Part shown: piece by piece, positions 21,401-37,749 of the stretch
Numbering within the stretch: position 1 is the first letter of the stretch
Layout of the letters: every line of letters begins with the position of its first letter
Origin: Candidatus Zymogenaceae bacterium
GTDB lineage: Bacteria > Desulfobacterota > Zymogenia > Zymogenales > Zymogenaceae
DNA: 64,000 nucleotides
NCBI GenBank assembly: GCA_016931225.1
Contig: JAFGFE010000005.1
Coordinates: 1-64,000 of the forward strand
Direction: 5' to 3'
The notes under the pieces: model-generated
Databases searched by the model: none
The model's input: only the letters and a program-made list of their open reading frames with translations
Told to the model about the DNA's origin: nothing
Position numbers and translations under genes: made by a program

Positions 21401-22168
21401 TCATTCCACCTTCTGAATCACCTCTTCGGCAAGCTCCAGGTACGATTTGACGCCTGCACTGCTGATATCAAACAGTATCGCAGGCTTTCCCATTTTGGGC
21501 ACCTCTGACAGACGGATGTTTCTGGGTATATATACATCGAAGACCTTTTTCTTGAGATCAACTCGGAGATCCTCGGCCACCTCCCGGGATGCAGACGTGC
21601 GCATATCCACCATCGTCAAAAGAAAGCCCAAGAGCTTCAGGTTCGGATTGAATTTCTTCCCGACCACACGGGCCGCCTTTATCAAACGTCCGATCGTCTT
21701 CAGGGCGTAAAATTCGCTCTGAACCGGTACTATCAGATAATCAGCCGCCGCCATGCCGGCGACGGTAATCGCCCCCAGGGACGGGGGGCAATCAATCAGC
21801 ACGAAATCATACGCATCCTTAATCTCATCGATGATATCCCTCACCATGAAGATGTTCTCGTTAATCCTATTGAAGTATGCGGTCTCTTCCTCGTTGCTCC
21901 AGATATTCGACGGGGCGAAGCTGAGGTACTCAATTTCCGTTCCATGAATCATCTTTCGGGGACTCATCCCGTTCAACACCACGTCATAAAAACCGCCCCG
22001 CAGATCCTCCCTCTTCCGTCCAAAACTAAGCCAGAGACCGCACTGGGGATCAAGACCAACGACCAATGTCCGTCGCTCATACACAGCGAGGGAAGCACCG
22101 AGGTTAACCGCCGTCGTTGTCTTCCCCACCCCGCCTTTCTGGCTGGCAATGGTAATCACATGACTCAT
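21401..22168 (-). CDS. ParA/Soj-family ATPase at the end of the chemosensory operon
   Basis: P-loop ATPase of the ParA/MinD superfamily: deviant Walker A KGGVGKTT (residues 10-17), Walker A' region LVVGLDPQCG and Walker B VLIDCPPSLG. No ParB gene or parS-like site is near. The gene follows cheB by 30 bases on the same strand. ParA-type proteins in chemotaxis operons (ParC/PpfA) position chemoreceptor arrays or segregate cytoplasmic clusters, which is the likely role here. Length of 255 residues is normal. Confidence 0.85.
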   Translation of the reverse strand: MSHVITIASQKGGVGKTTTAVNLGASLAVYERRTLVVGLDPQCGLWLSFGRKREDLRGGFYDVVLNGMSPRKMIHGTEIEYLSFAPSNIWSNEEETAYFNRINENIFMVRDIIDEIKDAYDFVLIDCPPSLGAITVAGMAAADYLIVPVQSEFYALKTIGRLIKAARVVGKKFNPNLKLLGFLLTMVDMRTSASREVAEDLRVDLKKKVFDVYIPRNIRLSEVPKMGKPAILFDISSAGVKSYLELAEEVIQKVE

Positions 22169-22198: not shown

Positions 22199-23314
22199 TC
22201 AGGCTTTTTTCGTGACGTTTTGAAGCATCGCCGGTATCTGGTTTATGGACAGCACCGAATCCACAACACCGTTTTCTATGGCGGATTTCGGCATACCGAA
22301 AACCAGGGAGGTGCTCTCGTCCTGGGCGATGGTTGTTCCCCCCATCATTTTTATGGCCTTCAGGCCCTTGGAGCCGTCCCTGCCCATTCCGGTAAGTATA
22401 ATACCGATCGTGTTCTCCCCAAATGTGGCGGCCGCCGAATAAAACAGGGTGTCGATGGAGGGTGTGGCGCTTTTTTCATCCTCATCCACCTTCTCAAGCT
22501 CCACCTGGGGGGCCAAAAACGGCTTGACAATCTTGACATTGTAATTACCCGGAGTCACCAATACCTTTCCGCTCTCGATGACGTCCCCGTTTTTTGCCTC
22601 CGAGACTTCCAGAAACGTCACCCTGCCCAGTCGTTCCGCGAAAAACCGTGTGAAGAATCTGGGCATGTGCTGGGCGACGATGATCCCTGCGGGAAAGGTC
22701 GGCGGCAGTTTTCCGAGGATGAATTCCAGGGCCTTCGGTCCCCCCGTGGACGCGCCGATCACCACGATCTTATTCTCCGCCAGACGGGCTAGCTCCTCCT
22801 TGGTGTATCCATCCGGCTTTTTCCTGATCGGCCTGATGCTTTTGCCCGCACCTCTGGCCTTTTCTTCGGCGATGTCCGGACTGATCGCCAGGTATTTATC
22901 CATGTCCACGTGATATGCGGCCCGTATCTTCGTCGTCAGCTCCTGCTTGAGGAACTTGAAGTTGAGGATCATGGATCCCTTCTTCGGCTTGGGAATAAAA
23001 TCCACTGCGCCCATCTCCAAGGCGCGAAAGGTAATGTTCGCTCCCTCGTTCGTCACCCCGCTGAGCATAATAACCGGGACCTTATACTCCCGGGCGAGTA
23101 TCTTCAGCGAGGACAGTCCGTCCATGCGGGGCATGATGACGTCCATTGTCACCACATCCGGCTTCAGGTCGAGATACTTCTGTATCGCATCCTCGCCGTT
23201 CACGGCGACTCCCACCACCTCGATGTCCGCTTCTTCCTCGAGGACATTCGTGACGGCCCGTCTGATAACAGGGGAATCATCGACTATCAGTGTTTTTATT
23301 CTACTACCCGCCAA
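22199..23314 (-). CDS. cheB: Chemotaxis protein CheB, intact methylesterase
   Basis: Receiver domain (D58 in VVTMDVIMPRMDG) joined to a CheB methylesterase domain with the full triad: S189 in IGASTGGP, H216 in AQHMPRFF and D313 in GMGRDG. It removes methyl groups from, or deamidates, MCP receptors, opposing CheR. It sits between cheA and parA. This is the only one of three CheB-type proteins in the operon with a complete active site. Confidence 0.95.
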   Translation of the reverse strand: MAGSRIKTLIVDDSPVIRRAVTNVLEEEADIEVVGVAVNGEDAIQKYLDLKPDVVTMDVIMPRMDGLSSLKILAREYKVPVIMLSGVTNEGANITFRALEMGAVDFIPKPKKGSMILNFKFLKQELTTKIRAAYHVDMDKYLAISPDIAEEKARGAGKSIRPIRKKPDGYTKEELARLAENKIVVIGASTGGPKALEFILGKLPPTFPAGIIVAQHMPRFFTRFFAERLGRVTFLEVSEAKNGDVIESGKVLVTPGNYNVKIVKPFLAPQVELEKVDEDEKSATPSIDTLFYSAAATFGENTIGIILTGMGRDGSKGLKAIKMMGGTTIAQDESTSLVFGMPKSAIENGVVDSVLSINQIPAMLQNVTKKA

Positions 23315-23350: not shown

Positions 23351-26300
23351 TCATGAGACCGGGGGAGTGTCGTTTTCCGTTTCGATTCTTTTCCTGACAG
23401 ATCGCTTCTGATACCGCCGCTCCGCCTGTTTTTTCCTGAGCTCCCGCTCCTTGGCGATCGCCAGGTTTACCAGTTCTATCACATCAATGATAAGAGATAT
23501 CGATCCATCCCCCATAATCGACGCGCCGGATACTCCCCTGGTTCCGGTCAGATATTCCTCGAGGGACTTGATAACGATATCCTCTTCACCCAGGAGCCTG
23601 TCCACTATGAGACCCACTTCCCTCCCCTCGGCGCTTAATATTACCACATATACCTTCTTTTGTGCATCCTCTTCACTTTCCCATCCGGTATTCATGCGAA
23701 ATATCTCTGAAAGATGCAGAAGCGGCAATACCTTGTCTCGTATCCTGAGGACCTGATGCCCTTCGATGGTATCAATCTCGTCGATGTGCACCTGGACCGT
23801 TTCAATAACCGATGACAGTGGAATGGAAAATACCCGCTGTTGTATCTCAACGATCAGGGCCTGGATAATCGCCAGGGTCAGCGGCAGCTTGATATTAAAC
23901 GATGCTCCCTTCCCCAACTCCGTTATCACGTCGATGCTCCCCTTCAGCTTGTCGACATTTCGTTTCACGATATCAAGCCCGACGCCCCGACCGGAAACAT
24001 GGCTGACCTTCTCGGCCAGGGAAACACCCGGCTTGAACAGATAATTGATCATGTCCCGCTCGGTCAGGCGTTCCGCCTCGAGGGCCGTAACCTCACCCGA
24101 AGACTCCATTCGCGACTTGATCTTGCTGAAGTCCATCCCTCTCCCGTCATCGGATACTTCGATGATCACCTGATTGCCCTGATGATACGCGGAGATATTC
24201 AATGTCCCTTGCTCGGGCTTGCCCATTTTTCGTCGTTCCCCGGGGGATTCGAAACCGTGATCGATGGAATTTCTGATAATGTGAGTAAGGGGGTCGCCGA
24301 TTTCCTCTATGACCGATTTGTCCAGCTCCGTTTCCTTACCGGTGATAATCAGGTTCACATCCTTGTTCATCTTGTTGGCCAGGTCACGCACCATCCGGGG
24401 AAATCGGGCGAACAACTGGTTTATACTGACCATCCTGACACGCATGACGCCTTCCTGGAGTTCATTGGAAACGCGGCTCAGCTCCGTTGTGGACTCCTCG
24501 AATTCAAGGGCGAGCTGTCTGAGGTTTATCATTTCCTGCTTGTCGAGCTTCTTCAATTCCAGGATTTCCCGATACATATCCCTGAACAAGTTTACCAACT
24601 GGGAAAAGCTTGCGCGGTTGACGACCAGCTCGCCCACCAGGTTCATGATATTATCCACCCGCTCGGTCTCCACCCTGAGGGTCTTTCGTGAATAGGGGAT
24701 CTCCGTTCCGGGCGGCTCTTCGTCGCCCCCTCCCGGGGGGACAGAACCTCCCGGCGGCGTCTCATCCGAGATTCTCCGGGAGGCGACCGGCGTCGCGGCC
24801 TCCCCCGGCTTCTCCATGACGGAAATATCCGGCGTTTCGGCCCGTATATCCTCCGCCTTCGGCCTTTCCCGGGGCTCCCGGGTCGGCACCGACGGTATTT
24901 CGACCGCCTCCGGGATCTTCCCCGCGGATCGGGAAAGCGTGCCGATCTCATCTTCCAATTCGGTATAGAAGCCGCCCAGAGTCTCAGACAACGATGAGAT
25001 CGATTCGGGATTATGTCCCGCTTCGGTGAGAATTTTCATCTCCTTCTCAAGAATACTCAGGATGGAGTCGTATCCCATGAATTTCGCCGACGACCGGAGG
25101 CTCTCCACCGCTTTCTTGTATATTTCCACCGATTCCTCGATATCACTTCCGTTCCGAATATTGGTGAGGCACACATCGATGGTCTCCATATATTGCTCGG
25201 CGGCGGAGAGGAATATCTGCAAGAGCTCCCGGTCTTCATCGGTCAGTTCAATCACCTCGGCCGTTTCTTCTTCCGATGGCTCGGTGAAAATCTTCGAGCG
25301 TCTCAGCGCGGATTTCAGACCTGACAATTCCTGCACCAGGGTGGTGACGGATTCAGGGCTCATCCCGTGGCGATCCTTCAGGTACCGTTCCAGAAGGGTG
25401 ACGATTTGGTTGAGTTGATCGACGATGGAGAAATATTCCATGTAATTCGCCGAACGTCTGAGCTTCAGCACAATCTCCAGCAATTCCTGTATTAAATCGT
25501 CATCGGCCTCCTTGTCCTCGATATCCTGAAGGCGCACATCCAGAATGGAAAAGAGGTCAACCGTAGCGGAGAGAAAAATATCTATCAGCTCCTCATCATA
25601 CCCCACGGCGAGATCCTCTTTGACCTCGCCTCTGATCGCCGCTATATGCCCTTCCGACTCCCCCTGTACCGTGGATACGGATGGGGCCTGTGTCTGAGCG
25701 GAAGCGGCCTCCCGCTCTTCCTGGAAAAAGGCGATGATATCCGAGGCAAGATTCGCGCTGATCCCTTCAATTTTGGAGAGATCCTCCTCATTCGCCCTGG
25801 ACAGCGCATCCCACGTCAAATAACCGGCTTCGTAGATCTGTCGGGCTTTTGCGGCGCCCACCCCGGGTATTATGGTGAATTCCTTGATCGCCTCATCGGC
25901 GGACAACGGTGTTTTGCCGTCGGTGCCGGAGATCTCCGTTGTGTTCCCAATGACCGGCTCTGTTTCGTTGACATATTCCCGGATAATGTCAAGGTTGTTG
26001 TAGAAACTGAGCACCTCGTTATCGGTGAGGCTCTCCCCCTCCTCAAGAAACAACATAATGGATTTACTGATATTGCTGAGACTCGTATCAAGCTCGTCGT
26101 ACCCGAAATACTCAATGGACGACCGAAAACTCTCCACAAGCTTCAGAAATCGCTCCAGTTCTTCGGTGGTTTTTTTCTCTTCCAACACCTTGAGAGCGTT
26201 TTCCAGCTCATCCATATGCTGCTCGAGGACCTCGGAAATCTCGTTGTCGAACACGTCCTCGCTTGGGGGGATATGGGCCTTCGAACGGGTGCGTACCGTA

Positions 26301-26887
26301 TCATCCACATCGCCGTATTTCTCACCGAGATCGGGAAACTCTTCATCCAGATCTAGATCCATCTCTATCGTGTCTTCCGGCTCTTCCGGAGGTTCCTCTG
26401 CGGCCTTCGTCGGTGCCGTGTCTTCCGGTTTTCTCGATGAAAACACTCCCTCGGTCACCTCGTCCGATGTCTCTTCATCCAGAGTGTCGTTCTCCGGCAA
26501 TTCGACGTCCCCATTAAGCAAACGATCAAGGGCGACGGAGGCGGATTCCACACTTGAGAGCTCCTCTTTACTCTCGGAGAGATCCTGCAGGAGAGACGTG
26601 ACCGTGTCCATACCCATAAAGAGAACATCGATTATATCCTTGGTGGCCGTCAGAGACCCCTGCCGGAGCCGTTCGAGTATGCTCTCCATCTTGTGCAGGA
26701 ATTCCCCGGTTTTCTCCAGGCCGATATAATCGGCTGATCCCTTGATGGAGTGAACGGCCCGAAAAAGCTGGTTGAGATATTCCTGGTTCTTCGGGTCGTC
26801 CACCAGCCGATTGAGGTTTTCCTCCAGCTCGGATAAGTGCTCGTTGCTTTCTATGATGAATTCCTTCAACAGTTCTTCATCGTACAT
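23351..26887 (-). CDS. cheA: Giant CheA histidine kinase with several Hpt-like repeats and a HhH module
   Basis: 1178 residues, far longer than a usual CheA (about 650). Residues 1-110 form a true Hpt domain (H46 in AVHSIKGSADY). Three further Hpt-like helical modules (near residues 245, 470 and 590) keep the scaffold but have E, L and E in place of the histidine. Residues about 340-388 form a helix-hairpin-helix (IPGVGAAKARQIYEAG and IEGISANLASDIIAFF). From about 729 come the P3 dimerisation helix, the kinase domain (N box RNSIDHGFE, SDDGRGMD, GRGVGLDIVK) and a CheW-like P5 domain. Acidic, proline-rich linkers connect the parts. It phosphorylates the operon's receivers. Confidence 0.93.
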   Translation of the reverse strand: MYDEELLKEFIIESNEHLSELEENLNRLVDDPKNQEYLNQLFRAVHSIKGSADYIGLEKTGEFLHKMESILERLRQGSLTATKDIIDVLFMGMDTVTSLLQDLSESKEELSSVESASVALDRLLNGDVELPENDTLDEETSDEVTEGVFSSRKPEDTAPTKAAEEPPEEPEDTIEMDLDLDEEFPDLGEKYGDVDDTVRTRSKAHIPPSEDVFDNEISEVLEQHMDELENALKVLEEKKTTEELERFLKLVESFRSSIEYFGYDELDTSLSNISKSIMLFLEEGESLTDNEVLSFYNNLDIIREYVNETEPVIGNTTEISGTDGKTPLSADEAIKEFTIIPGVGAAKARQIYEAGYLTWDALSRANEEDLSKIEGISANLASDIIAFFQEEREAASAQTQAPSVSTVQGESEGHIAAIRGEVKEDLAVGYDEELIDIFLSATVDLFSILDVRLQDIEDKEADDDLIQELLEIVLKLRRSANYMEYFSIVDQLNQIVTLLERYLKDRHGMSPESVTTLVQELSGLKSALRRSKIFTEPSEEETAEVIELTDEDRELLQIFLSAAEQYMETIDVCLTNIRNGSDIEESVEIYKKAVESLRSSAKFMGYDSILSILEKEMKILTEAGHNPESISSLSETLGGFYTELEDEIGTLSRSAGKIPEAVEIPSVPTREPRERPKAEDIRAETPDISVMEKPGEAATPVASRRISDETPPGGSVPPGGGDEEPPGTEIPYSRKTLRVETERVDNIMNLVGELVVNRASFSQLVNLFRDMYREILELKKLDKQEMINLRQLALEFEESTTELSRVSNELQEGVMRVRMVSINQLFARFPRMVRDLANKMNKDVNLIITGKETELDKSVIEEIGDPLTHIIRNSIDHGFESPGERRKMGKPEQGTLNISAYHQGNQVIIEVSDDGRGMDFSKIKSRMESSGEVTALEAERLTERDMINYLFKPGVSLAEKVSHVSGRGVGLDIVKRNVDKLKGSIDVITELGKGASFNIKLPLTLAIIQALIVEIQQRVFSIPLSSVIETVQVHIDEIDTIEGHQVLRIRDKVLPLLHLSEIFRMNTGWESEEDAQKKVYVVILSAEGREVGLIVDRLLGEEDIVIKSLEEYLTGTRGVSGASIMGDGSISLIIDVIELVNLAIAKERELRKKQAERRYQKRSVRKRIETENDTPPVS

Positions 26888-27005: not shown

Positions 27006-27767
27006 TCAAACCGCGTTATAGAGAATGTGAATGCCTATCAATAATAACAGAAATATAAAAATTTCCCTCAAAATCCGGTCATCTATTCGACCGGCAAGCC
27101 TCGGCCCGATCTGACCGCCGATTATTACGCCCGGTATGCTCCACAGAAGCACGGAGGTATCGAACCTGCCGCCGAACGCCAAGTGAGAGACCACGCCGAT
27201 TACGGCGACGACGGCCATCACCAGAACCGCGGTCCCCACCGCCACTTCCATCGAGAGCTTGAAACGCTTGACCATTATCGGCACGATGAAATCGCCCACC
27301 CCCACCGAAAGAAGTCCGCTGACAAAAGAAGACACCAACGGAACGATGCCGAACCGCACGGCTTCCCGTATCTCCACCGTGGTGCGGCGCTCGTCCGTGA
27401 ACCAATCGTCTCCCGAAATGAAGAACAGCGCGATACCGATAGTCACAAGACCCAGGGCCACCTCGAGGATGTGTGACGGGAGCCGCTGGCTGACGAATGA
27501 TCCCAGCACCACCATCGGTACGGCCGTCCCGATGCACAGAAGCGCCAGCGGCACATCGACCCTCTTTATCCACAGGTACCGAACCGTACCGCTGCCGATT
27601 CCCGCGACCTGTATCGCCAGGGCCGTCGGTACCGCCACGTCCGGCGGAAGCCTCAGGACCAGCATTAAAAACGGCATCCATAATACTCCGCCGCCGATCC
27701 CGGTAATGGTCACCACCGTGGCGATGGCAATCCCTACGAAAAACGAGAGAAAGACCAGTGATTCCAT
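27006..27767 (-). CDS. TauE/SafE-family membrane transporter, pair 1
   Basis: About eight hydrophobic segments, with the family's GIGGGVLWMP near the N-terminus and the mirrored second-half motif SGLLSVGVGDFIVP. The family exports sulfite, sulfonates or other small anions. It lies 4 bases downstream of a HAMP-only membrane protein, and the same pair recurs at 28411-30074. A substrate-linked sensing role with the HAMP protein is inference. Confidence 0.88.
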   Translation of the reverse strand: MESLVFLSFFVGIAIATVVTITGIGGGVLWMPFLMLVLRLPPDVAVPTALAIQVAGIGSGTVRYLWIKRVDVPLALLCIGTAVPMVVLGSFVSQRLPSHILEVALGLVTIGIALFFISGDDWFTDERRTTVEIREAVRFGIVPLVSSFVSGLLSVGVGDFIVPIMVKRFKLSMEVAVGTAVLVMAVVAVIGVVSHLAFGGRFDTSVLLWSIPGVIIGGQIGPRLAGRIDDRILREIFIFLLLLIGIHILYNAV

Positions 27768-27770
27768 GAA

Positions 27771-28403
27771 TCACAAATTCCATTTTCCTTCCGGCTCCAC
27801 GGAAAACAGGGTAAACTCTTCCGTCATTTCATGTAACTGCACAAGGCTCCGCCTGAGATGTTCCGTCTCCCGATATGCCGGGGCCTCTGTACCGTTCGGA
27901 TCTATCAAGCACGCCTGTATATCGTCCAGGGAATCCAAGCCGGAGGAGGCGAAAATCCGGACATGGCCCACCACCTCGCCGAAATCGCTGATGAGATCGT
28001 TAATGAATTCCCCCATCCTGCCGATTTCATCGTTGGTATAGACCGGCATCGCCTCCTTCAAGTCGCCCGTGGAGATGCGGTCGCCGACCCGGAACATACG
28101 CCTCAACGGCAGGGTGATCTTCTTGACAAAGATGACCAGCACCACGCTTGTAATAAGCACCTGTATGGCAAGAAGCAGCATAACCTTGTTCCTGAGGCGG
28201 ACCAACGGCTCTATCGCCTCGGCTTCCGTGATGCTTCCCGCAGTCAGAAGAGCCGCATTATCCAATATCATTCCCCGCAGGTTCTCATCGCCAACCTCCC
28301 GCATGAACTCGATGCCCAGGGTGAGTACGGTCAGAACGATGATCATGAGATATATGATCATCCGTCTGCCGATGGTAATCCGTTCTTTCTTCCCCGGCTC
28401 CAT
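27771..28403 (-). CDS. HAMP-domain membrane protein without output domain, pair 1
   Basis: 210 residues: a membrane segment (MIIYLMIIVLTVLTLGIEFM), a short exterior helix of about 45 residues, a second membrane segment (VMLLLAIQVLITSVVLVIFV), a HAMP domain (LPLRRMFRVGDRISTGDL through PVYTNDEIGRMG) and a helical tail. It has no MCP tip, kinase or cyclase domain. It is clearly paralogous to the gene at 29235, sharing PVYTxDEIGxxGxxINDxxxDFxEV. It lies between two TauE/SafE genes and may couple transporter state to the CheA array. Confidence 0.8.
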   Translation of the reverse strand: MEPGKKERITIGRRMIIYLMIIVLTVLTLGIEFMREVGDENLRGMILDNAALLTAGSITEAEAIEPLVRLRNKVMLLLAIQVLITSVVLVIFVKKITLPLRRMFRVGDRISTGDLKEAMPVYTNDEIGRMGEFINDLISDFGEVVGHVRIFASSGLDSLDDIQACLIDPNGTEAPAYRETEHLRRSLVQLHEMTEEFTLFSVEPEGKWNL

Positions 28404-28410
28404 ACGCTCC

Positions 28411-29223
28411 CTAATACATCATTTCTATAATAATACTGAGGTTGTCAGCGATCATCTTGGCGCCTGTGAGCAGCACAAACATGGAAAACAGTATCTTGAG
28501 AACCGCCTCCGGAGCGAACCTGTTTAAAATCGGCCCAAGCTGCCCGCCGCACAACACGCCGGTCATGGTAAATATCGCCACATCCCAACGTATCTGGCCC
28601 TCCCAGATATTGATTGATGTGGCCACGTATCCGGCAATGGCCTCCACCATCACGGTGGTCGCCACCGCCCGGTGCACGTTGAGTTTGTAGACACGCTCCA
28701 GAACCGGGAAGATGGTCTCCGCCGTACCCACCGAGGAGAGTCCGCTGGAGAGCCCTCCCAAAAACGGAACCCACGCGAAGGGATATATCTCCTCGGTTCC
28801 CAAACCCTCCCGATTTCCATATTTCTTTTCCGCCATGGAGACAAACGTCCATATGGCGCACCCCACGACGATCAGCCCGAAAAACACCTTGAGGATCGCC
28901 TCGTTGGTCACCAGGGCCAGATGAAGACCGATAATCACGCCCGGTATGGTGAGCATGATCATCGGAAAGGCTATATTGAATTCGATTTGACGCTGTCTGA
29001 CGTATCCCACCAGCGCGGAGCTCATGCCGACGAGCTCCGTGACCATGCCGGTGCCGACGCTCTCGGGCACGGTCATGCCTAGAAAATATACAAAAATGGG
29101 CAGAAAGATAATCCCGCCGCCGAATCCGCTTCCAGTGGCGGTCATCGCCACCAGGATGGAAATCGGAAACATAAACCAGTTTGCCGACGACTGGGCGAGA
29201 AATTCCATCACATGCTCCATCAT
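28411..29223 (-). CDS. TauE/SafE-family membrane transporter, pair 2
   Basis: 270 residues with an ordinary TauE/SafE layout: N-terminal GSGFGGGIIFLPIF, central charged loop, and second-half LGGLSSGLSSVGTAETIFPVL. It is distantly similar to the protein at 27006. It is separated by 7 and 11 bases from HAMP genes on both sides, so it is co-transcribed with them. Confidence 0.88.
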   Translation of the reverse strand: MMEHVMEFLAQSSANWFMFPISILVAMTATGSGFGGGIIFLPIFVYFLGMTVPESVGTGMVTELVGMSSALVGYVRQRQIEFNIAFPMIMLTIPGVIIGLHLALVTNEAILKVFFGLIVVGCAIWTFVSMAEKKYGNREGLGTEEIYPFAWVPFLGGLSSGLSSVGTAETIFPVLERVYKLNVHRAVATTVMVEAIAGYVATSINIWEGQIRWDVAIFTMTGVLCGGQLGPILNRFAPEAVLKILFSMFVLLTGAKMIADNLSIIIEMMY

Positions 29224-29234
29224 CCATGCCCATA

Positions 29235-30059
29235 TTACAGTTTGTCAAGATCGATCTGGTAGAAACTAAAGGATTCCACCAGCGATTTGAGCTCTCGGAT
29301 GTCCTTGTAGAGGACATTGAGCTGCTGTTGAATTTCATCACTGATTTGCTTTTCCTTGAGTACTTCCACCCGGTTATGAATAACATCGGTAGCGTCCGCC
29401 GCGGATAGGCTGATCTTTCCAACCATCAATAAAACTTCCTGAAAATCCGCGGTTATATCATTAATGATGCCACCCAGCTGACCTATCTCGTCTTTCGTAT
29501 ACACCGGCACCGTCTTTGCGAGATTTCCCCGGGAAATCTCCTTCGCCGTCTGTACCATCTCGTCCAGGGGACCGGCCACGTCCTTGATAAAGAAAAACAG
29601 GGTTAAGAAGACCGCCGCCAGCACTATTCCCAAAACAATGATCATACGTATCTGCAGGTGATTCAGCGGTTCATATATCGACTCGAAATTAAAACCCGCC
29701 ACAGCATCCAAAGCTGTGTGTTCCTCGGCCTGAACCATGATGATCTCGGTGATCTGATCGGTCAGCTTCGGCTCGCCCACCTCGATAATCAACTCCACCG
29801 TAATGGCGATACAGACGAACACCACCAGCAGGAAATATATCAACAGCTTTTTCTTCAGATCGCTGAAAATGGCGCTTTGACGCTTCTCTTTCGCGGATTT
29901 CCTCCGTTCACTTTTCCTGCGTTCCACGCCGAAGCGACGCTCACCCTTTTTTTGCACATCCCGCCAGTTATGTTTCCTTCTCTCTCCTTTTCTCTGTTTT
30001 TCCCTCCGACGATCAACACCGTTCCAGGATGAGCCGCCCTCGCCATTTATTTCGTTCAT
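29235..30059 (-). CDS. HAMP-domain membrane protein with basic N-terminal tail, pair 2
   Basis: Two membrane segments (LLIYFLLVVFVCIAITVEL and MIIVLGIVLAAVFLTLFFF) enclose a short exterior loop; then a HAMP domain (GPLDEMVQTAKEISRGNL through PVYTKDEIGQLG) and a helical tail without an output domain. Unlike its paralogue at 27771, it carries a cytoplasmic tail of about 65 residues rich in repeated ERRK/RRKSERRKS blocks. ATG 30074 is open, but GGAAGG lies six bases before ATG 30059. It is part of the duplicated HAMP-TauE module. Confidence 0.8.
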   Translation of the reverse strand: MNEINGEGGSSWNGVDRRREKQRKGERRKHNWRDVQKKGERRFGVERRKSERRKSAKEKRQSAIFSDLKKKLLIYFLLVVFVCIAITVELIIEVGEPKLTDQITEIIMVQAEEHTALDAVAGFNFESIYEPLNHLQIRMIIVLGIVLAAVFLTLFFFIKDVAGPLDEMVQTAKEISRGNLAKTVPVYTKDEIGQLGGIINDITADFQEVLLMVGKISLSAADATDVIHNRVEVLKEKQISDEIQQQLNVLYKDIRELKSLVESFSFYQIDLDKL

Positions 30060-30133
30060 CTGATGCCTTCCCATGAATTCAAAGGTAATATCAAGATGCT
30101 AATCTCCGCATAATTGATACCCAGCAACACCTT

Positions 30134-30508
30134 TCATTCGTTCAGGACCCGGACCACGGTGGCCTTGAGCTCCTCGGGGGTAAAGGGCTTCAAGATCACC
30201 GCTCTGATCCCCATTTTTTCCGCCGCCTCTTCAAGAAAATGCTTTTCCTCCTCCTGTCGGAGGGTCAGCAGTATTACGCGGGCGTCCGGATTATCCTTGA
30301 GGATCGTTTCCGCTGCGGTAAAGCCGTCGGTATTTCGCATGGTCACATCCATCGTGACCAGGTCCGGCTGAAGCCGGCGAAACAACTCCACGGCTTCATC
30401 GCCGTCCTTTGCCTCTCCCACCACTTCGATATCGTCGTCCAACAGCGCCTCTTTAATACGGTTTCGCATGAAGGTCGAGTCATCGACAACTAACACGGTC
30501 CTGGGCAT
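30134..30508 (-). CDS. cheY: CheY-like single-domain response regulator
   Basis: 124 residues, only a receiver: VLVVDDST acidic pair, phospho-Asp in LVTMDVTM, LLTL threonine and the KPF lysine are all present. It is the most canonical CheY of the operon and follows the MCP gene. Its downstream target (motor, pilus or other) is unknown because no such genes are near. Confidence 0.9.
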   Translation of the reverse strand: MPRTVLVVDDSTFMRNRIKEALLDDDIEVVGEAKDGDEAVELFRRLQPDLVTMDVTMRNTDGFTAAETILKDNPDARVILLTLRQEEEKHFLEEAAEKMGIRAVILKPFTPEELKATVVRVLNE

Positions 30509-30725: not shown

Positions 30726-33071
30726 CTACTTCTCCCGCGCGATCTCGTCCGCCGTGCGGAACCGGAACTGGCTCATAAGATCAACATTGGTACCGGCCAT
30801 TCGCTGGATCGTCTCGGCGTTTTCCCGGACGATACCGGCTCCCTCAACCACCTCCGAGGTGTTCTGAACGCCTTCGATAATACTCTCGCTGATGCGGGCT
30901 GAACGGCTCGCGACATCCTGAATGACCTCCTCGAAGGCCTGGGTTCTCCGTCCCTGCTCGGTGGTCAACTCCACGATTTCTTGGGCCAGAGACGCCAGGT
31001 CGTCCATGGAGCGAAGCACCTCCTCGATGCTCTTGAGCTGCAGGGTCATGGCCTCGGCGACCGTTCCAGCCATTGCCGTGGCCTCCTCGCCGGATTTCAC
31101 GCCGAACTCAAGGCTCTCCGTCGCCTCACGGGCCAGGTTTGCATTCTGCCGGGCGATACCTGTGGTTTCCTCGGCATTCTTGAGAATCCGGTCCAGCTCC
31201 ATGGCCACATCTCCGGCGGCCCGGGTACCGTCTTCCACGGCGCGATGCGCTGCTCGGATCAGGTCGGTAATCTCCTTGGTGGCCTCACCGGAACGCTCGG
31301 CCAGTTTCCTGACCTCGTCGGCGACCACCGCAAAACCCTTCCCATGCTCGCCGGCTCTCGCCGCCTCAATGGCGGCGTTGAGGGCCAGGAGGTTGGTTTG
31401 CTCGGCGATGTCGTTGATGACCTCGACGATCTCAAACACCTGCTCGGTGGATTCGGAGATCGATCGAATACCTACCTCGTTTCTTTGCACCGCTTCCTGG
31501 CCGGCTCTGGCGATACTCATCACGTTCTCGGCACGCTCGGCGGCGCCCGCGGCGTTTGTCGTCACGGTACCGGCAATCTCCAGGGCCCTTCTCAGCTCGG
31601 CGGTGGCCTCAAGACCTCCCGCAGAAACGCCTTTCGCCTGCTCCACCAGCTCGTTGATGGCCGACGCCATCTCGTTGACCGACGAAGATGTCTGGGCGGC
31701 GTTTGTTGCCTGGGCGTTGGCTCGCTCCTGGACGGACAGGGCTGTTTGGGCCATTTCGGAAATCAGGTTCAAGGCCGTTCGGGACGCCTCCACCTCACTC
31801 TCGGTAATATCGGAGATCTCGTTCATTTTTCCCCGGAGCTCCGTCATAATGCTTGCATTTCTCTCAGCAATAGGCCCCGCTTCCTGGGAGAGGTTTCGCA
31901 CCGTTCCGGCGCCCTGGGCGACCCGGGCAACAATGCCCTCCAGTCGGGCCACGAACTCATTAAAGTTCTGTGCCAAAACCCCCAGTTCATCACTTGTCGT
32001 TACCTCCAGTCGCTGTGTCAGGTCAGCGCCGGCGCCGGCCAGCGCCTCCATCTGGTCGGAGTACCGGGTGATGGGACCTGAGATGTTTCGGGCAAAGAAA
32101 TACGCCACGACTCCCACCAGGACCGCCATGAGAAGCGTTATCACCGTGGCGTATATTCGCGAGGCGGACAGGGTACGGTAGGCTTCCGCAACGTCAGATT
32201 CCGAGACAATGAGCATGTTGTACTGGGGAACGGGGATGGCCACGCCGAATACGTCCGTACCCCGGTAGTCCTCCCATCTGCCGAAAGTACGCTCCTCCTC
32301 TCTGCCGCCCACGTATTCCTCTACGGTAGCGGCCAGCTCGGCGCCTCGCTTGTAGCTTTCCAGATCAGAGATGTTGATCTCGAAGATCGCCGTCTCTTTC
32401 ACCAGTCCCTCACGTATCAGGTCAGCAACGAAGAGAGACTCAGAGGCCATGTACCCGGTATCCAGGGCTGCGATATAGGTTTCACCGGTGTCACCGAATC
32501 TCGTGTGAGTGAGGAGATCCGTGAAATAATTCGGTTCGATAAGCTGTACGAACACACCGTACTTTACCCCTCCCTTTATAACCGGGCCGGACAGAGCGAT
32601 CAATATATGACCATGGATGGGGTCCTCATAATATTTGACCACAACATTATCCGGGTCATTATTGCCAATCGCCTCCGAGAACCAGTCCTCATTGATAAAA
32701 CTGTTCCCGATGTTTTCAGGAAACGTGCTGGCCTTGCAGACGCCCGAGTTGTCGATATACATGATATCGTGAAGAAATCGGGTTCGCTCCGCCTTCAGGG
32801 ACTCAAAGAGCGTCACCGTGATGAAGAACTCTCCGGTCACCAGCGGTTGCTCGAATTCCGCGTAACTGGCGAAGGTTCGATGGTCACTGCGACGCTCTGC
32901 AAAAAACTCGGTGATGATACCGCCCGCTGCATTCGAGAGGGACGTCAACTCACTCTCGATTAGCGTGTTGGTATCCGATTTGACTCGCTGATACGCCATA
33001 ATCGATATCGTCAGCATCGGAACAAGGGCGATGACGATCATTAGGACGATCAGTTTTAACCGAATAGACAT
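30726..33071 (-). CDS. Methyl-accepting chemotaxis protein with dCache-like sensor
   Basis: 781 residues. TM1 ([19 protein letters not shown]), an exterior region of about 270 residues compatible with a double Cache domain, TM2 ([17 protein letters not shown]), a HAMP domain, and a long cytoplasmic coiled coil with the conserved hairpin tip [22 protein letters not shown]-rich helices provide methylation sites for the CheR and CheB in the same operon. It is the only MCP in the window. The ligand cannot be predicted. Confidence 0.93.
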
Positions 33072-33141: not shown

Positions 33142-33633
33142 TTATTCAACACCAGTCAACTGCTCTCTTTCTCGATCGGTGAGTATCTTGGAAAAATCCA
33201 GAAGAATGATCAGCCGGTCCTCCAGGCGGCTTACGCCGTAGATATACTCGCTCTCCACCCCGGCGGTTACCATTTCAGGCGCACTCTGAATGGACTCCGT
33301 ATGAACGCTCATGACCTTGGAGACCGAATCAACGATAAAACCGGTCACCTTTTCCTCCAACTCGATGATCATAATCCGGGTGGCTTTGTCAGTCGGAGTA
33401 ATTTCCAGATCCAGACGCCGGCGCAGGTCCACCACCGGCACCACCTTTCCGCGAAGGTTTATGACGCCCTCCAGAAACGCCGGTGTGTTCGGTACCTCGG
33501 TTATGGTAGTCGGCCGGATGATCTCCTGGACCAGAAGGATGTCAACCCCGAATTCCTCGTTACTTAAGAAAAATGTAACAATCTGCATATCCCCCGCTCT
33601 TTCGAGCCCCTCGGCCCGTTTTTCTTCGGCCAT
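33142..33633 (-). CDS. cheW: CheW adaptor protein
   Basis: 163 residues with the CheW fold: FFLSNEEFGVDILLVQEI, VINLRGKVVPVVDLRRRL and the VSKVMSV region are typical. It links the MCP to CheA. It lies 13 bases after cheR and 70 bases before the MCP gene. Confidence 0.93.
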   Translation of the reverse strand: MAEEKRAEGLERAGDMQIVTFFLSNEEFGVDILLVQEIIRPTTITEVPNTPAFLEGVINLRGKVVPVVDLRRRLDLEITPTDKATRIMIIELEEKVTGFIVDSVSKVMSVHTESIQSAPEMVTAGVESEYIYGVSRLEDRLIILLDFSKILTDREREQLTGVE

Positions 33634-34896: not shown

Positions 34897-36699
34897 TTAC
34901 TTTTTTTTCAATGCCTTTGAAAGCTCAAAAGCAATGCTGACATCCGGAAATACGCCGTCGGTAATACCGTCCGCGATCACCGCCGACGGCATCTGGGGAT
35001 AGAGGCATGTCTTCTCCTCCTGGGCGAATATCAATCCACCCATCTGTTTTACCTCCCGGGCGCCCTCAATCCCATCGTCATGTTCCCCGGTCATAACCAC
35101 TCCGATGGCCCTGTCTCCATAGGTCTCCGCCAGGGAAAGCAAAAGCATATTGAAGGAGTTTTTATGTTCGAAGTCGAAAGGACGTTCATGGAGTCTTATT
35201 TTCTTTGTGCCGCTGTCATCGACAACGGTCATGTAATTGCCGTCGGACGTAATGTAACAGACTCTCTCTTTAATCTCCTCACCGTCGACGGCGGGTTTGA
35301 CGATCATTTGGGAAAAGGTGTTGAGATAATCGGCAAAAGGTCCGACAATATCGTTCGGCATGTACTGCACCGCCAGCACCGCGGCGTTCACATCTTTCGG
35401 GAATCTGGTGATCATCTTCATCATTGAACCATACCCGCCCATTGCGGCCCCGACGGCCACCACGTTATCGGCCCGGTTGTGCGACGAGATATCGGTGTCG
35501 TCGCTTTCACTTTCCGTTACTCGAATGTGTTGGATGGAGCTGATCCTGACCTGAGCGGCCCGTTTGATCTTTTCGATGATGTTCCTTTTCTGATCTTCGA
35601 GACTCAGGTCCTGACGGGAATTGGGCTTGGCGATGAAATCCACCGCGCCGAAGCGAAACGAATCGAAGGTCGTTTTTGCGCCCTCCACCGTATACGCCGA
35701 CAGCATCACCACCGGCGTCGGCTGCATGATCATAATATGCTTGAGGGCGGTCAATCCGTCCATTTCCGGCATATTGACGTCCATCGTCACCACATCAGGC
35801 CGATGCTTGGCGAGCTTCACCAGGGCGTCCTTGCCGTCCCGGGCGATATCCACAACGTCGACATCCTCGTCACCGGAGAGAATATCAGAAATCCCCTTGG
35901 CGATGATCTTGGAGTCGTCCACCACCAGCACCTTCACCCTTCCCCCGGTCGAAAGAAAAGATCCTTCCGTGTTGTCGATGATGATTTCCTCATCCAACAC
36001 AAAATCCTTTCGGTGTATCTCGTCGAGGGTAACTATGTTTTCCATCAACAATTGTTCCCACTTCTTATGAATGGACTTGGCAATGGGAGCGGTGTTTCGT
36101 TGTGTGGAAAATTGACCACCGGGCCACGACAGTATCTCCTTCAAGGCGGGCTCGCCTTTGGTCCCGTTCGATTCCGCATGAACTATTTCGCCGTTCTCGA
36201 AAAAGATTATCCCCTCCCGGCCCTGGGAACGAAAACTCACCGCGTTCGTCACCCTGGCCAGGCAGTTGAGCTGAATGATGTCCGGTATTTGTATGCCCTC
36301 CATTTCCCCCTTGAAGCTTCCGACGCTCCTTTCAAAGGCGCTTGTTATCAGGCTAAACAGCTCTTTCGGTTCGAAGGGTTTTTCGATATACCCCACAGAC
36401 CCGTTCTGAAAGGCTTGACTATGAAGCTCGGGAGTTGAATAACCGGTCATCATGATGACCTTAACTTCAGGATGGTGTTTTTTTACCTCCATTAAGAGAT
36501 CAAACCCATTGACATCGGGCATGTAGATATCGGTAACCAATATATCAATGTCCTGGGACCTGATTATTTCGATGGCGTCTCCGCCCGATACGCATTCGAT
36601 ATATTCGTATCCTTCACTGAATCCTTTGAGGTTCTTGATGATGAATGCAAGAAGATCCCGGTCATCATCCACCACTAAAACTTTTTTTGTATCACTCAT
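34897..36699 (-). CDS. REC-PATAN-REC-CheB fusion with inactive methylesterase domain
   Basis: 600 residues: a receiver (1-120, phospho-Asp in ILVTDIYMPD), a DUF4388/PATAN domain (about 130-225, with IFFENGEIVHA), a second receiver (255-375, MDVNMPEMDG) and a CheB methylesterase fold (410-600). The catalytic serine of IGAST is A419 (VGAAMGG) and the catalytic histidine of QHMP is Y446 (VQYMP); only the aspartate (D542) remains. It should therefore not cleave methyl esters and may instead bind receptor sites or act as a phosphate sink. The gene lies between an atypical CheB and a receiver gene. Confidence 0.9.
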   Translation of the reverse strand: MSDTKKVLVVDDDRDLLAFIIKNLKGFSEGYEYIECVSGGDAIEIIRSQDIDILVTDIYMPDVNGFDLLMEVKKHHPEVKVIMMTGYSTPELHSQAFQNGSVGYIEKPFEPKELFSLITSAFERSVGSFKGEMEGIQIPDIIQLNCLARVTNAVSFRSQGREGIIFFENGEIVHAESNGTKGEPALKEILSWPGGQFSTQRNTAPIAKSIHKKWEQLLMENIVTLDEIHRKDFVLDEEIIIDNTEGSFLSTGGRVKVLVVDDSKIIAKGISDILSGDEDVDVVDIARDGKDALVKLAKHRPDVVTMDVNMPEMDGLTALKHIMIMQPTPVVMLSAYTVEGAKTTFDSFRFGAVDFIAKPNSRQDLSLEDQKRNIIEKIKRAAQVRISSIQHIRVTESESDDTDISSHNRADNVVAVGAAMGGYGSMMKMITRFPKDVNAAVLAVQYMPNDIVGPFADYLNTFSQMIVKPAVDGEEIKERVCYITSDGNYMTVVDDSGTKKIRLHERPFDFEHKNSFNMLLLSLAETYGDRAIGVVMTGEHDDGIEGAREVKQMGGLIFAQEEKTCLYPQMPSAVIADGITDGVFPDVSIAFELSKALKKK

Positions 36700-36714: not shown

Positions 36715-37749
36715 CTATAGATCGTTCTTTAAAATAGGAATATCATGAAAATCATTGATCACCTGGGTTATCAGACCCCGTTCCAGGACATCCCGGTCCG
36801 AATCCGGGAGAAAGTGCGTCTCGTAACTCTGAACAAGGGTCGTTCCTCCCCTTCGATACACCTCCTCAATACCCTTTACTCCATCCTGATTCACCCCGGC
36901 AATGAGCATGCCGATCGTTCCCGACTCGAAGATTTCAGCCGCGGATATCATCATGGCATCTATGGGTTTTCCTTCAGTAGGTCTACTCTCTATATAAAAC
37001 GTGTCTTCAAAGATGTCCTCATGAATGCCGATATTGTTGGAGAGTGAGTTTACATACACCGTTGATTGCCTGAGAATCGTTTTGTCGGCGGCGACAACCA
37101 CATTGAGGGGAGATACCGTATTGAATTTTTCAACAAACGATTCGAGTATCATCGGCGAAATATCCTGACTGATGAGTATTGGTGTTTTGAAGTCCCTCGG
37201 CAGATGGTGCACCAGCCTGATAATATGGTTCGGACCGCCCAGAGATGTCCCGACGACAATAATTCTCTTTTTCGTCCATGGAGCATTCTCCACCTGTGGG
37301 CGATCGGATAATTCCTGGATTTTCACCCGCCTGATATTCTCCACATCAACGGTGGACGCGATCTTTATACGGTGTATCAATTCCTCCTTCTGGGACTCAA
37401 TATTTCGAGATACCGATCCGGACGGCTTCGGCAGAAAATCAACAACGCCGAGTCTGAGACTCTCGAACGTCACGTCCCCCTGATGGGTCAGCGCGCTGAC
37501 CACGACAACGGGCGTGGGGCATTCGATCATAATATGCTTAAGCGCGGTAATACCGTCCATTTCCGGCATGTCGATATCAAGGGTCACCACGTCCGGCTTC
37601 AGGGTTTTGACGGCCTCGATCCCCTCCTGTCCCGTCTTCCCGTATCCCACCACCTTGATATTCTCGTCGGACTCCAGGAGCCTGGTGAGCTCTTTTCGCA
37701 TGAACTCCGCGTCATCGACGATCACAACCCTGATATTTTTATCTACCAT
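36715..37749 (-). CDS. CheB-like protein with altered catalytic triad
   Basis: 344 residues, a canonical receiver (phospho-Asp in VVTLDIDMPEMDG) joined to a CheB fold. The serine is kept (S169 in VGTSLGG) and the late aspartate too (D289 in VNQDGVKG), but the histidine position of AQHMP reads SQDIS, with D196. Methylesterase activity is therefore doubtful. It is the second of three CheB-type proteins in this operon. Confidence 0.88.
   Translation of the reverse strand: MVDKNIRVVIVDDAEFMRKELTRLLESDENIKVVGYGKTGQEGIEAVKTLKPDVVTLDIDMPEMDGITALKHIMIECPTPVVVVSALTHQGDVTFESLRLGVVDFLPKPSGSVSRNIESQKEELIHRIKIASTVDVENIRRVKIQELSDRPQVENAPWTKKRIIVVGTSLGGPNHIIRLVHHLPRDFKTPILISQDISPMILESFVEKFNTVSPLNVVVAADKTILRQSTVYVNSLSNNIGIHEDIFEDTFYIESRPTEGKPIDAMMISAAEIFESGTIGMLIAGVNQDGVKGIEEVYRRGGTTLVQSYETHFLPDSDRDVLERGLITQVINDFHDIPILKNDL

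What the first reader, a model, noticed from the sequence alone, without database searches (positions are those of the whole stretch)
27006..30074. Tandemly repeated TauE/SafE transporter plus HAMP-only protein module
Two HAMP-TauE pairs follow each other with 4-11 base gaps. The HAMP proteins are paralogues (shared PVYTxDEIG core) with no output domain, so they need a partner. A HAMP protein could read the state of the anion transporter and pass it to the CheA array. I know of no described system of this kind.
Basis: partly seen in the sequence, partly recalled or inferred. Interest (0 to 1): 0.85.

Follow-up and report, generated by a model that had tools for sequence, protein, structure and literature searches.

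The report
HAMP-transporter gene pairs beside CheA
Two copies of a membrane transporter gene, each paired with a gene for a small signal-relay protein that has no recognisable output domain, sit in the middle of a bacterial sensing operon; the pairing is real and inherited across several bacterial families, which suggests that this transporter type works as part of a sensor, though no experiment has shown it.

Summary
On the minus strand the order is cheY-HAMP1-TauE1-HAMP2-TauE2-cheA-cheB-parA, with gaps of 11, 7 and 3 bases inside the module. HAMP1 and HAMP2 are full-length paralogues, and so are TauE1 and TauE2. The block is syntenic in two same-family genomes.

In 395 genomes of the phylum, the short HAMP protein (15 genomes) and this TauE clade (16 genomes) occur together in all but one fragmented genome. 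Both are confined to the same six families, and two genomes carry both unlinked. They are largely confined to genomes with one CheA class.

Two corrections. First, HAMP1 belongs to a branch that sits between cheY and cheA without TauE in two other families, so it is a che component, not simply a TauE reader; the HAMP2-TauE2 type is the inherited pair. Second, the proteins keep a conserved C-terminal helical segment, and the genome has no FlhA but has PilT, so this is not flagellar chemotaxis.

Most likely, TauE gates or is read by HAMP, and the signal reaches the che array through the HAMP helices. Contact and direction are inferred, not shown. Effector-less HAMP receptors near transporters are known (Af1503), so this is a new variant of a known kind.

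The parts
29235..30074 (-). HAMP1: basic cytoplasmic N-tail, TM1 (about residues 79-97), short outside loop, TM2 (145-163), HAMP (162-206), conserved C-terminal helical segment; che-core branch of the family
28411..29223 (-). TauE1: TauE/SafE-family membrane protein, divergent member of the HAMP-associated TauE clade, seen only in family f1
27771..28403 (-). HAMP2: TM1-short loop-TM2-HAMP-C-terminal helical segment; TauE-paired branch of the family
27006..27767 (-). TauE2: TauE/SafE-family membrane protein, member of the HAMP-associated TauE clade
30134..30508 (-). CheY-like response regulator directly upstream of HAMP1; the same neighbour in families f1, f6 and f56
23351..26887 (-). long CheA (1178 aa) downstream of TauE2: Hpt, HHH insert, P3, HATPase, CheW
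30726..33071 (-). membrane chemoreceptor with a dCache-like sensor (below Pfam cut-off), HAMP and MCP signalling domain, same operon region
33142..33633 (-). CheW
22199..23314 (-). CheB with intact Ser/His/Asp motifs
21401..22168 (-). ParA-like ATPase, conserved partner of this che cluster

Best explanation
The short HAMP protein and the TauE-type transporter are partners in the membrane. The HAMP protein has two transmembrane helices and almost no outside domain, so its input most likely comes sideways from TauE: substrate occupancy or the transport state of TauE shifts the HAMP helices, much as sensory rhodopsin II drives HtrII. The C-terminal helical segment passes this on. In this genome the che-core branch (HAMP1) sits with the CheA array and a second pair (HAMP2-TauE2) has been inserted next to it, with TauE1 as a lineage-specific, diverged partner of HAMP1. 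The array would then respond to an anion handled by TauE and control a non-flagellar output such as type IV pili. Shown: gene order, paralogy, conservation, co-occurrence of the HAMP and TauE families, largely with one CheA class, absence of FlhA. Inferred: physical contact, direction of signalling, link of HAMP to CheA, substrate, output.
For: Discrete TauE clade: 19 members at E<=4e-87, the next hit in 395 genomes at 3e-38. HAMP family: full-length hits down to 1e-23, best generic HAMP hit 8e-19 with partial coverage. Of 16 genomes with the TauE clade, 15 have the short HAMP protein (G167 by a fragment ending at the contig edge); the hypergeometric value is 3e-26 by genome and 6e-10 by family (not corrected for phylogeny, and the TauE profile was seeded with paired members). 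Two genomes (G008, G385) keep both proteins unlinked. Tight spacing or overlap in the adjacent pairs. Mirror-tree Spearman 0.76 over 16 pairs and 0.90 in the paired branch. HAMP1 branch in the cheY-cheA slot in three families (f1, f6, f56) and the pair directly after parA in f42. Thirteen of the 16 genomes carry one CheA class found in 27 of 395. The HAMP proteins have two TM helices and a short loop.
Against: No interface could be modelled. Pairs occur away from che genes in G101, G311 and G345, so signalling to CheA is not needed to keep the pair. HAMP1 orthologues exist without an adjacent TauE. HAMP1 and HAMP2 have no MCP tip, so any contact with CheA/CheW would be of an undescribed type. 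The mirror-tree signal is not corrected for the species tree; the CheA-class profile was seeded mostly with these genomes.
Confidence: 0.42

Rival explanations
1. The signal runs the other way: the HAMP protein is a regulatory subunit that opens or closes the TauE transporter. Che proximity means the array, or the same stimulus, controls anion transport, not that TauE is a sensor.
For: The pair is the inherited unit and stands alone away from che genes in G101, G311 and G345. In f42 it is followed by an ABC transporter with an NMT1-type binding protein, a transport context. In the MamO case a TauE-like domain is needed for regulation of another protein, possibly through transport (PMC4794232). 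No recognised output domain.
Against: The che-core HAMP branch persists between cheY and cheA without TauE beside it, which fits a signalling role; most pair-bearing genomes also carry one CheA class.
Confidence: 0.3
2. HAMP1 is a structural or regulatory membrane anchor of this ParA-associated array (tethering or placing CheA/CheY through its basic tail), unrelated in function to TauE; HAMP2-TauE2 is a separate system that landed in the operon by insertion.
For: HAMP1-type genes in the cheY-cheA slot without TauE in G079, G311 and G385; two deep branches in the HAMP tree; K/R-rich tail, 24 K+R against 10 D+E in 70 residues; ParA in the cluster.
Against: In f1 a TauE of the same clade follows HAMP1 directly in all three genomes; HAMP1 and HAMP2 are full-length homologues; in f42 it is the paired branch that lies at the che operon. 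The tail is short or absent in other che-core members.
Confidence: 0.18
3. The transporters serve anion homeostasis (for instance sulfite or organosulfonate export) and are only co-transcribed; the neighbours do not interact.
For: TauE proteins are common (all 14 control genomes match); substrates of the family are sulfite or sulfonates by literature (cited in PMC4794232).
Against: Only this TauE clade goes with the HAMP protein; the window genome has further TauE proteins outside the clade. Co-occurrence holds even where the genes are unlinked (G008, G385).
Confidence: 0.1

Closest known systems
Af1503-like receptors (Archaeoglobus fulgidus; PMC4834066)
   Same: Two-TM-type receptor whose only recognised cytoplasmic domain is HAMP, no effector module, in an operon with a membrane transporter (MgtE); the authors note that such neighbourhoods are enriched for transport components.
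   Different: Af1503 is archaeal and is coupled to the STAC protein Af1502; no STAC-like gene was recognised here. The transporter here is TauE/SafE, and the short HAMP proteins have almost no outside domain and lie in or beside a che operon.
Sensory rhodopsin II - HtrII (own knowledge; HtrII HAMP appears among PDB hits)
   Same: A membrane-embedded partner feeds a two-TM HAMP protein that has no large sensor domain of its own.
   Different: HtrII ends in an MCP kinase-control domain; these proteins do not. The partner is a transporter family, not a rhodopsin.
CbrA-type transporter-STAC-kinase fusions (PMC4834066)
   Same: A solute transporter domain coupled to two-component signalling.
   Different: One polypeptide with an SLC5 transporter and kinase; here separate genes, TauE, and no kinase in the unit.
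MamO (PMC4794232)
   Same: A TauE-like domain that is needed to regulate another protein.
   Different: Fused to a protease-like domain in magnetosome biology; no HAMP; only a weak profile resemblance to TauE2 (E=2e-4).

Membership tests
TauE/SafE (PF01925) | Profile match over the whole domain | tested here: met
   TauE1 2-237 of 237, E=2.1e-38; TauE2 2-236, E=1.5e-45
TauE/SafE (PF01925) | Anion transport activity | not testable with these tools
   needs a transport assay; no solved relative found by sequence
HAMP domain proteins (PF00672) | Profile match above the curated cut-off | tested here: met
   42.1 and 28.4 bits against a cut-off of 25
Methyl-accepting chemotaxis proteins | MCP signalling domain with kinase-binding tip | tested here: not met
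   no PF00015 match in HAMP1 or HAMP2
Af1503-like effector-less HAMP receptors | HAMP as the sole recognised cytoplasmic domain, no effector | tested here: met
   but a conserved helical segment follows HAMP
Af1503-like effector-less HAMP receptors | Genomic coupling to a short STAC protein | tested here: not met
   no short ORF lies between the module genes; no STAC profile was run, so judged from gene order only
Af1503-like effector-less HAMP receptors | Full-length sequence homology to Af1503 | tested here: inconclusive
   the family profile matches only the HAMP part of AF1503 constructs
Flagellar chemotaxis system | Flagellar export component FlhA in the genome | tested here: not met
   no PF00771 match in G000 (99% complete) or G002
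Tfp (type IV pili) chemosensory class | CheA with multiple Hpt domains; most multi-Hpt CheAs also carry a receiver domain (PMC10782961) | tested here: inconclusive
   window CheA shows one Hpt, an HHH insert and no receiver; one relative has two Hpt stretches; PilT is present

The most novel reading that the evidence does not exclude
A transporter-fed input to a CheA array without a classical chemoreceptor: TauE1/TauE2 act as membrane sensors, short HAMP proteins relay their state, and HAMP1-HAMP2 mixed dimers or direct contact carry it to the array.
Probability: 0.28. Interest if true: 0.85.

Novelty: new variant of a known kind. Interest (0 to 1): 0.62.

Why it matters
Effector-less HAMP proteins have had no clear partner or output. 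A family that is inherited with one transporter clade, is found in or beside che operons in several families, and is small and two-gene makes a clean test case for how a transporter could feed a signalling array, and for whether chemosensory arrays accept inputs other than classical chemoreceptors.

Tried and rejected
(1) Chance neighbours or a one-genome oddity: rejected by synteny and the phylum survey. (2) A simple duplication of the whole pair: only partly right; TauE1 and TauE2 are one clade, but HAMP1 belongs to a deep che-core branch that exists without an adjacent TauE. (3) CheA co-occurrence as such: weak, 283 of 395 genomes have CheA, so 16 of 16 is about 0.005 by genome and 0.14 by family. 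(4) Structure: HAMP2 and TauE2 are in frame across one TGA and two codons, so I folded them as one chain with window sequences only; pLDDT 48.7. HAMP1 with HAMP2: 57.7. Both are too poor for fold searches or interface claims. (5) Collection-wide protein search for HAMP1 returned only generic HAMP proteins. (7) Promoter scan: no sign of an internal promoter (1 site, 3 expected); terminator-like patterns are more frequent than in shuffles but lie mostly inside genes. (8) No paper found that links TauE with HAMP or chemosensing.

Full report
What is there. Minus strand, in order: CheR, CheW, a membrane chemoreceptor, CheY, HAMP1, TauE1, HAMP2, TauE2, a long CheA, CheB, ParA. Gaps inside the module are 11, 7 and 3 bases; 59 bases separate CheY from HAMP1 and 118 separate TauE2 from CheA. 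Both HAMP proteins match PF00672 and both TauE proteins match PF01925 over the full domain. HAMP1 and HAMP2 are alike over 204 residues and TauE1 and TauE2 over 227. Hydropathy gives two TM helices with a short loop in each HAMP protein and about seven strong TM peaks in each TauE.

Conservation. In G002 the whole stretch, and in G003 the same order split over several contigs, repeats cheY-HAMP1-TauE1-HAMP2-TauE2-cheA (G002 also cheB and parA), with 67/73/52/56% identity for HAMP1/TauE1/HAMP2/TauE2 between the window genome and G002. The third relative of the family, G001, has neither HAMP nor TauE of this kind.

Survey. A profile of the short HAMP proteins was run on 395 genomes of the phylum. 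Full-length, short-frame matches are separated from generic HAMP hits, which cover only the HAMP region and lie in long frames. They occur in 14 genomes; G167 adds a fragment that ends at a contig edge directly before TauE. A TauE profile from the paired proteins gives 16 genomes with E<=4e-87, while the next hit is 3e-38. All 15 HAMP genomes are among the 16; the exception, G044, is 67% complete. Both sets cover the same six families (f1, f6, f42, f55, f56, f79). The hypergeometric values are 3e-26 by genome, 5e-18 by genus and 6e-10 by family. These ignore phylogeny, and the TauE profile was seeded with HAMP-paired members; however, TauE members in G008, G044, G079, G167 and G385 were not seeds, and a single-sequence search with TauE1 in 118 genomes also found only this clade.

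Contexts. f1: both pairs inside the che operon. f42: cheW-cheY-cheA-cheB genes-parA-HAMP-TauE-ABC transporter with an NMT1-type binding protein (four genomes shown in full; in G048 the run is split between two contigs inside parA; G167 is seen only from the end of HAMP onwards). f6 and f56: a HAMP1-type gene between cheY and cheA with no TauE (G079, G311, G385; G008 is cut at the contig edge), plus a HAMP2-type gene and a TauE elsewhere: adjacent in G311, unlinked in G008 and G385; in G079 only the TauE was found. f55 (G101) and f79 (G345): a HAMP-TauE pair alone, away from che genes.

Trees. The HAMP tree splits into a che-core branch (f1 HAMP1, f6, f56) and a TauE-paired branch, with some long rows. 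In the TauE tree the paired members of the window genome, f6/f56 and G101+f42 form groups that match the HAMP tree, and TauE1 is a long branch of f1 only. Distances correlate (Spearman 0.76 for 16 pairs, 0.90 for 13 of the paired branch). Within f1, pair 1 is better conserved in both members than pair 2. None of this corrects for the species tree.

Link to CheA. CheA in general is common (283 of 395). A profile of the CheA core of these clusters puts 12 genomes on top, all with HAMP and TauE, followed by a related set down to about 520 bits; 27 genomes in all, 13 of them among the 16 TauE genomes (1.4e-14). The three others (G008, G044, G167) are fragmented assemblies. Eleven of the 13 were seeds or near copies of seeds; G101 was not a seed. 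In three class members without HAMP that I inspected (G275, G128, G364) CheY is followed directly by CheA. So HAMP1 fills the cheY-cheA slot only in a subset.

What the array may control. FlhA is absent from G000 and G002 (both 99% complete) and from G215, G237, G311, G345 and G385, but present in G008, G048, G079, G101 and G319. PilT is present in all eleven tested. The cluster is therefore not a flagellar one by need; type IV pili or another output is more likely. This is inference.

Mechanism. The HAMP proteins have no sensor domain to speak of and no MCP, kinase or cyclase output. A lateral input from TauE through the TM helices is the simplest use of this anatomy; the conserved helical segment after HAMP, ending in F-x-F-Y or similar in most members, is the likely contact surface for the next partner. 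Whether TauE informs HAMP or HAMP gates TauE cannot be told from sequence. I put about 0.42 on the sensing direction with the array as receiver and about 0.30 on regulation of transport.

Relation to the known. Af1503-like receptors end in HAMP, lack an effector and lie near transporters such as MgtE, with STAC proteins (PMC4834066). That is the same kind of arrangement with a different transporter, no recognised STAC partner and no che operon. The profile reaches only the HAMP part of AF1503. SRII-HtrII is an analogue for lateral input (own knowledge). MamO shows that a TauE-like domain can be needed to regulate a partner (PMC4794232).

Limits. Only one phylum was surveyed, without organism names. 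No interface prediction of use was obtained. Gene starts are as called by ORF.

Noticed in passing
window 23351-26887: CheA of 1178 aa carries a helix-hairpin-helix (HHH_5) insert at residues 338-389, also found in G002 and G311 but not in the f42 relative G237; a published survey of CheA architectures does not mention HHH.
   Followed up: partly
window 34897-36699 and 36715-37749: Three CheB-like proteins lie in one che region; two look degenerate: in the RR-DUF4388-RR-CheB protein the motif Ser and His are replaced (GAAMGG, QYMP), in the other the His is replaced by Asp.
   Followed up: partly
window 29865-30074: HAMP1 begins with a 70-residue lysine/arginine-rich tail (24 K+R, 10 D+E), kept in G002 and G003 but short or absent in the other che-core HAMP proteins.
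   Followed up: no
L084:10067-12705 and equivalents in L085, L086, L087, L047: In family f42 the HAMP-TauE pair is followed by an ABC transporter with permease, ATPase and an NMT1-type binding protein, a hint at the substrate class.
   Followed up: partly
window 27768-27773: HAMP2 and TauE2 are in frame across one TGA stop and one further codon (TTC); the same is true with other stops in L088 and L037. No fused protein was seen.
   Followed up: partly
L110 (G000:C18:125000-140000): The genome has a second, different che cluster (CheR, MCP, CheW, CheY, CheB, CheA) with a PilT match nearby at G000:C18:141591-142625.
   Followed up: no
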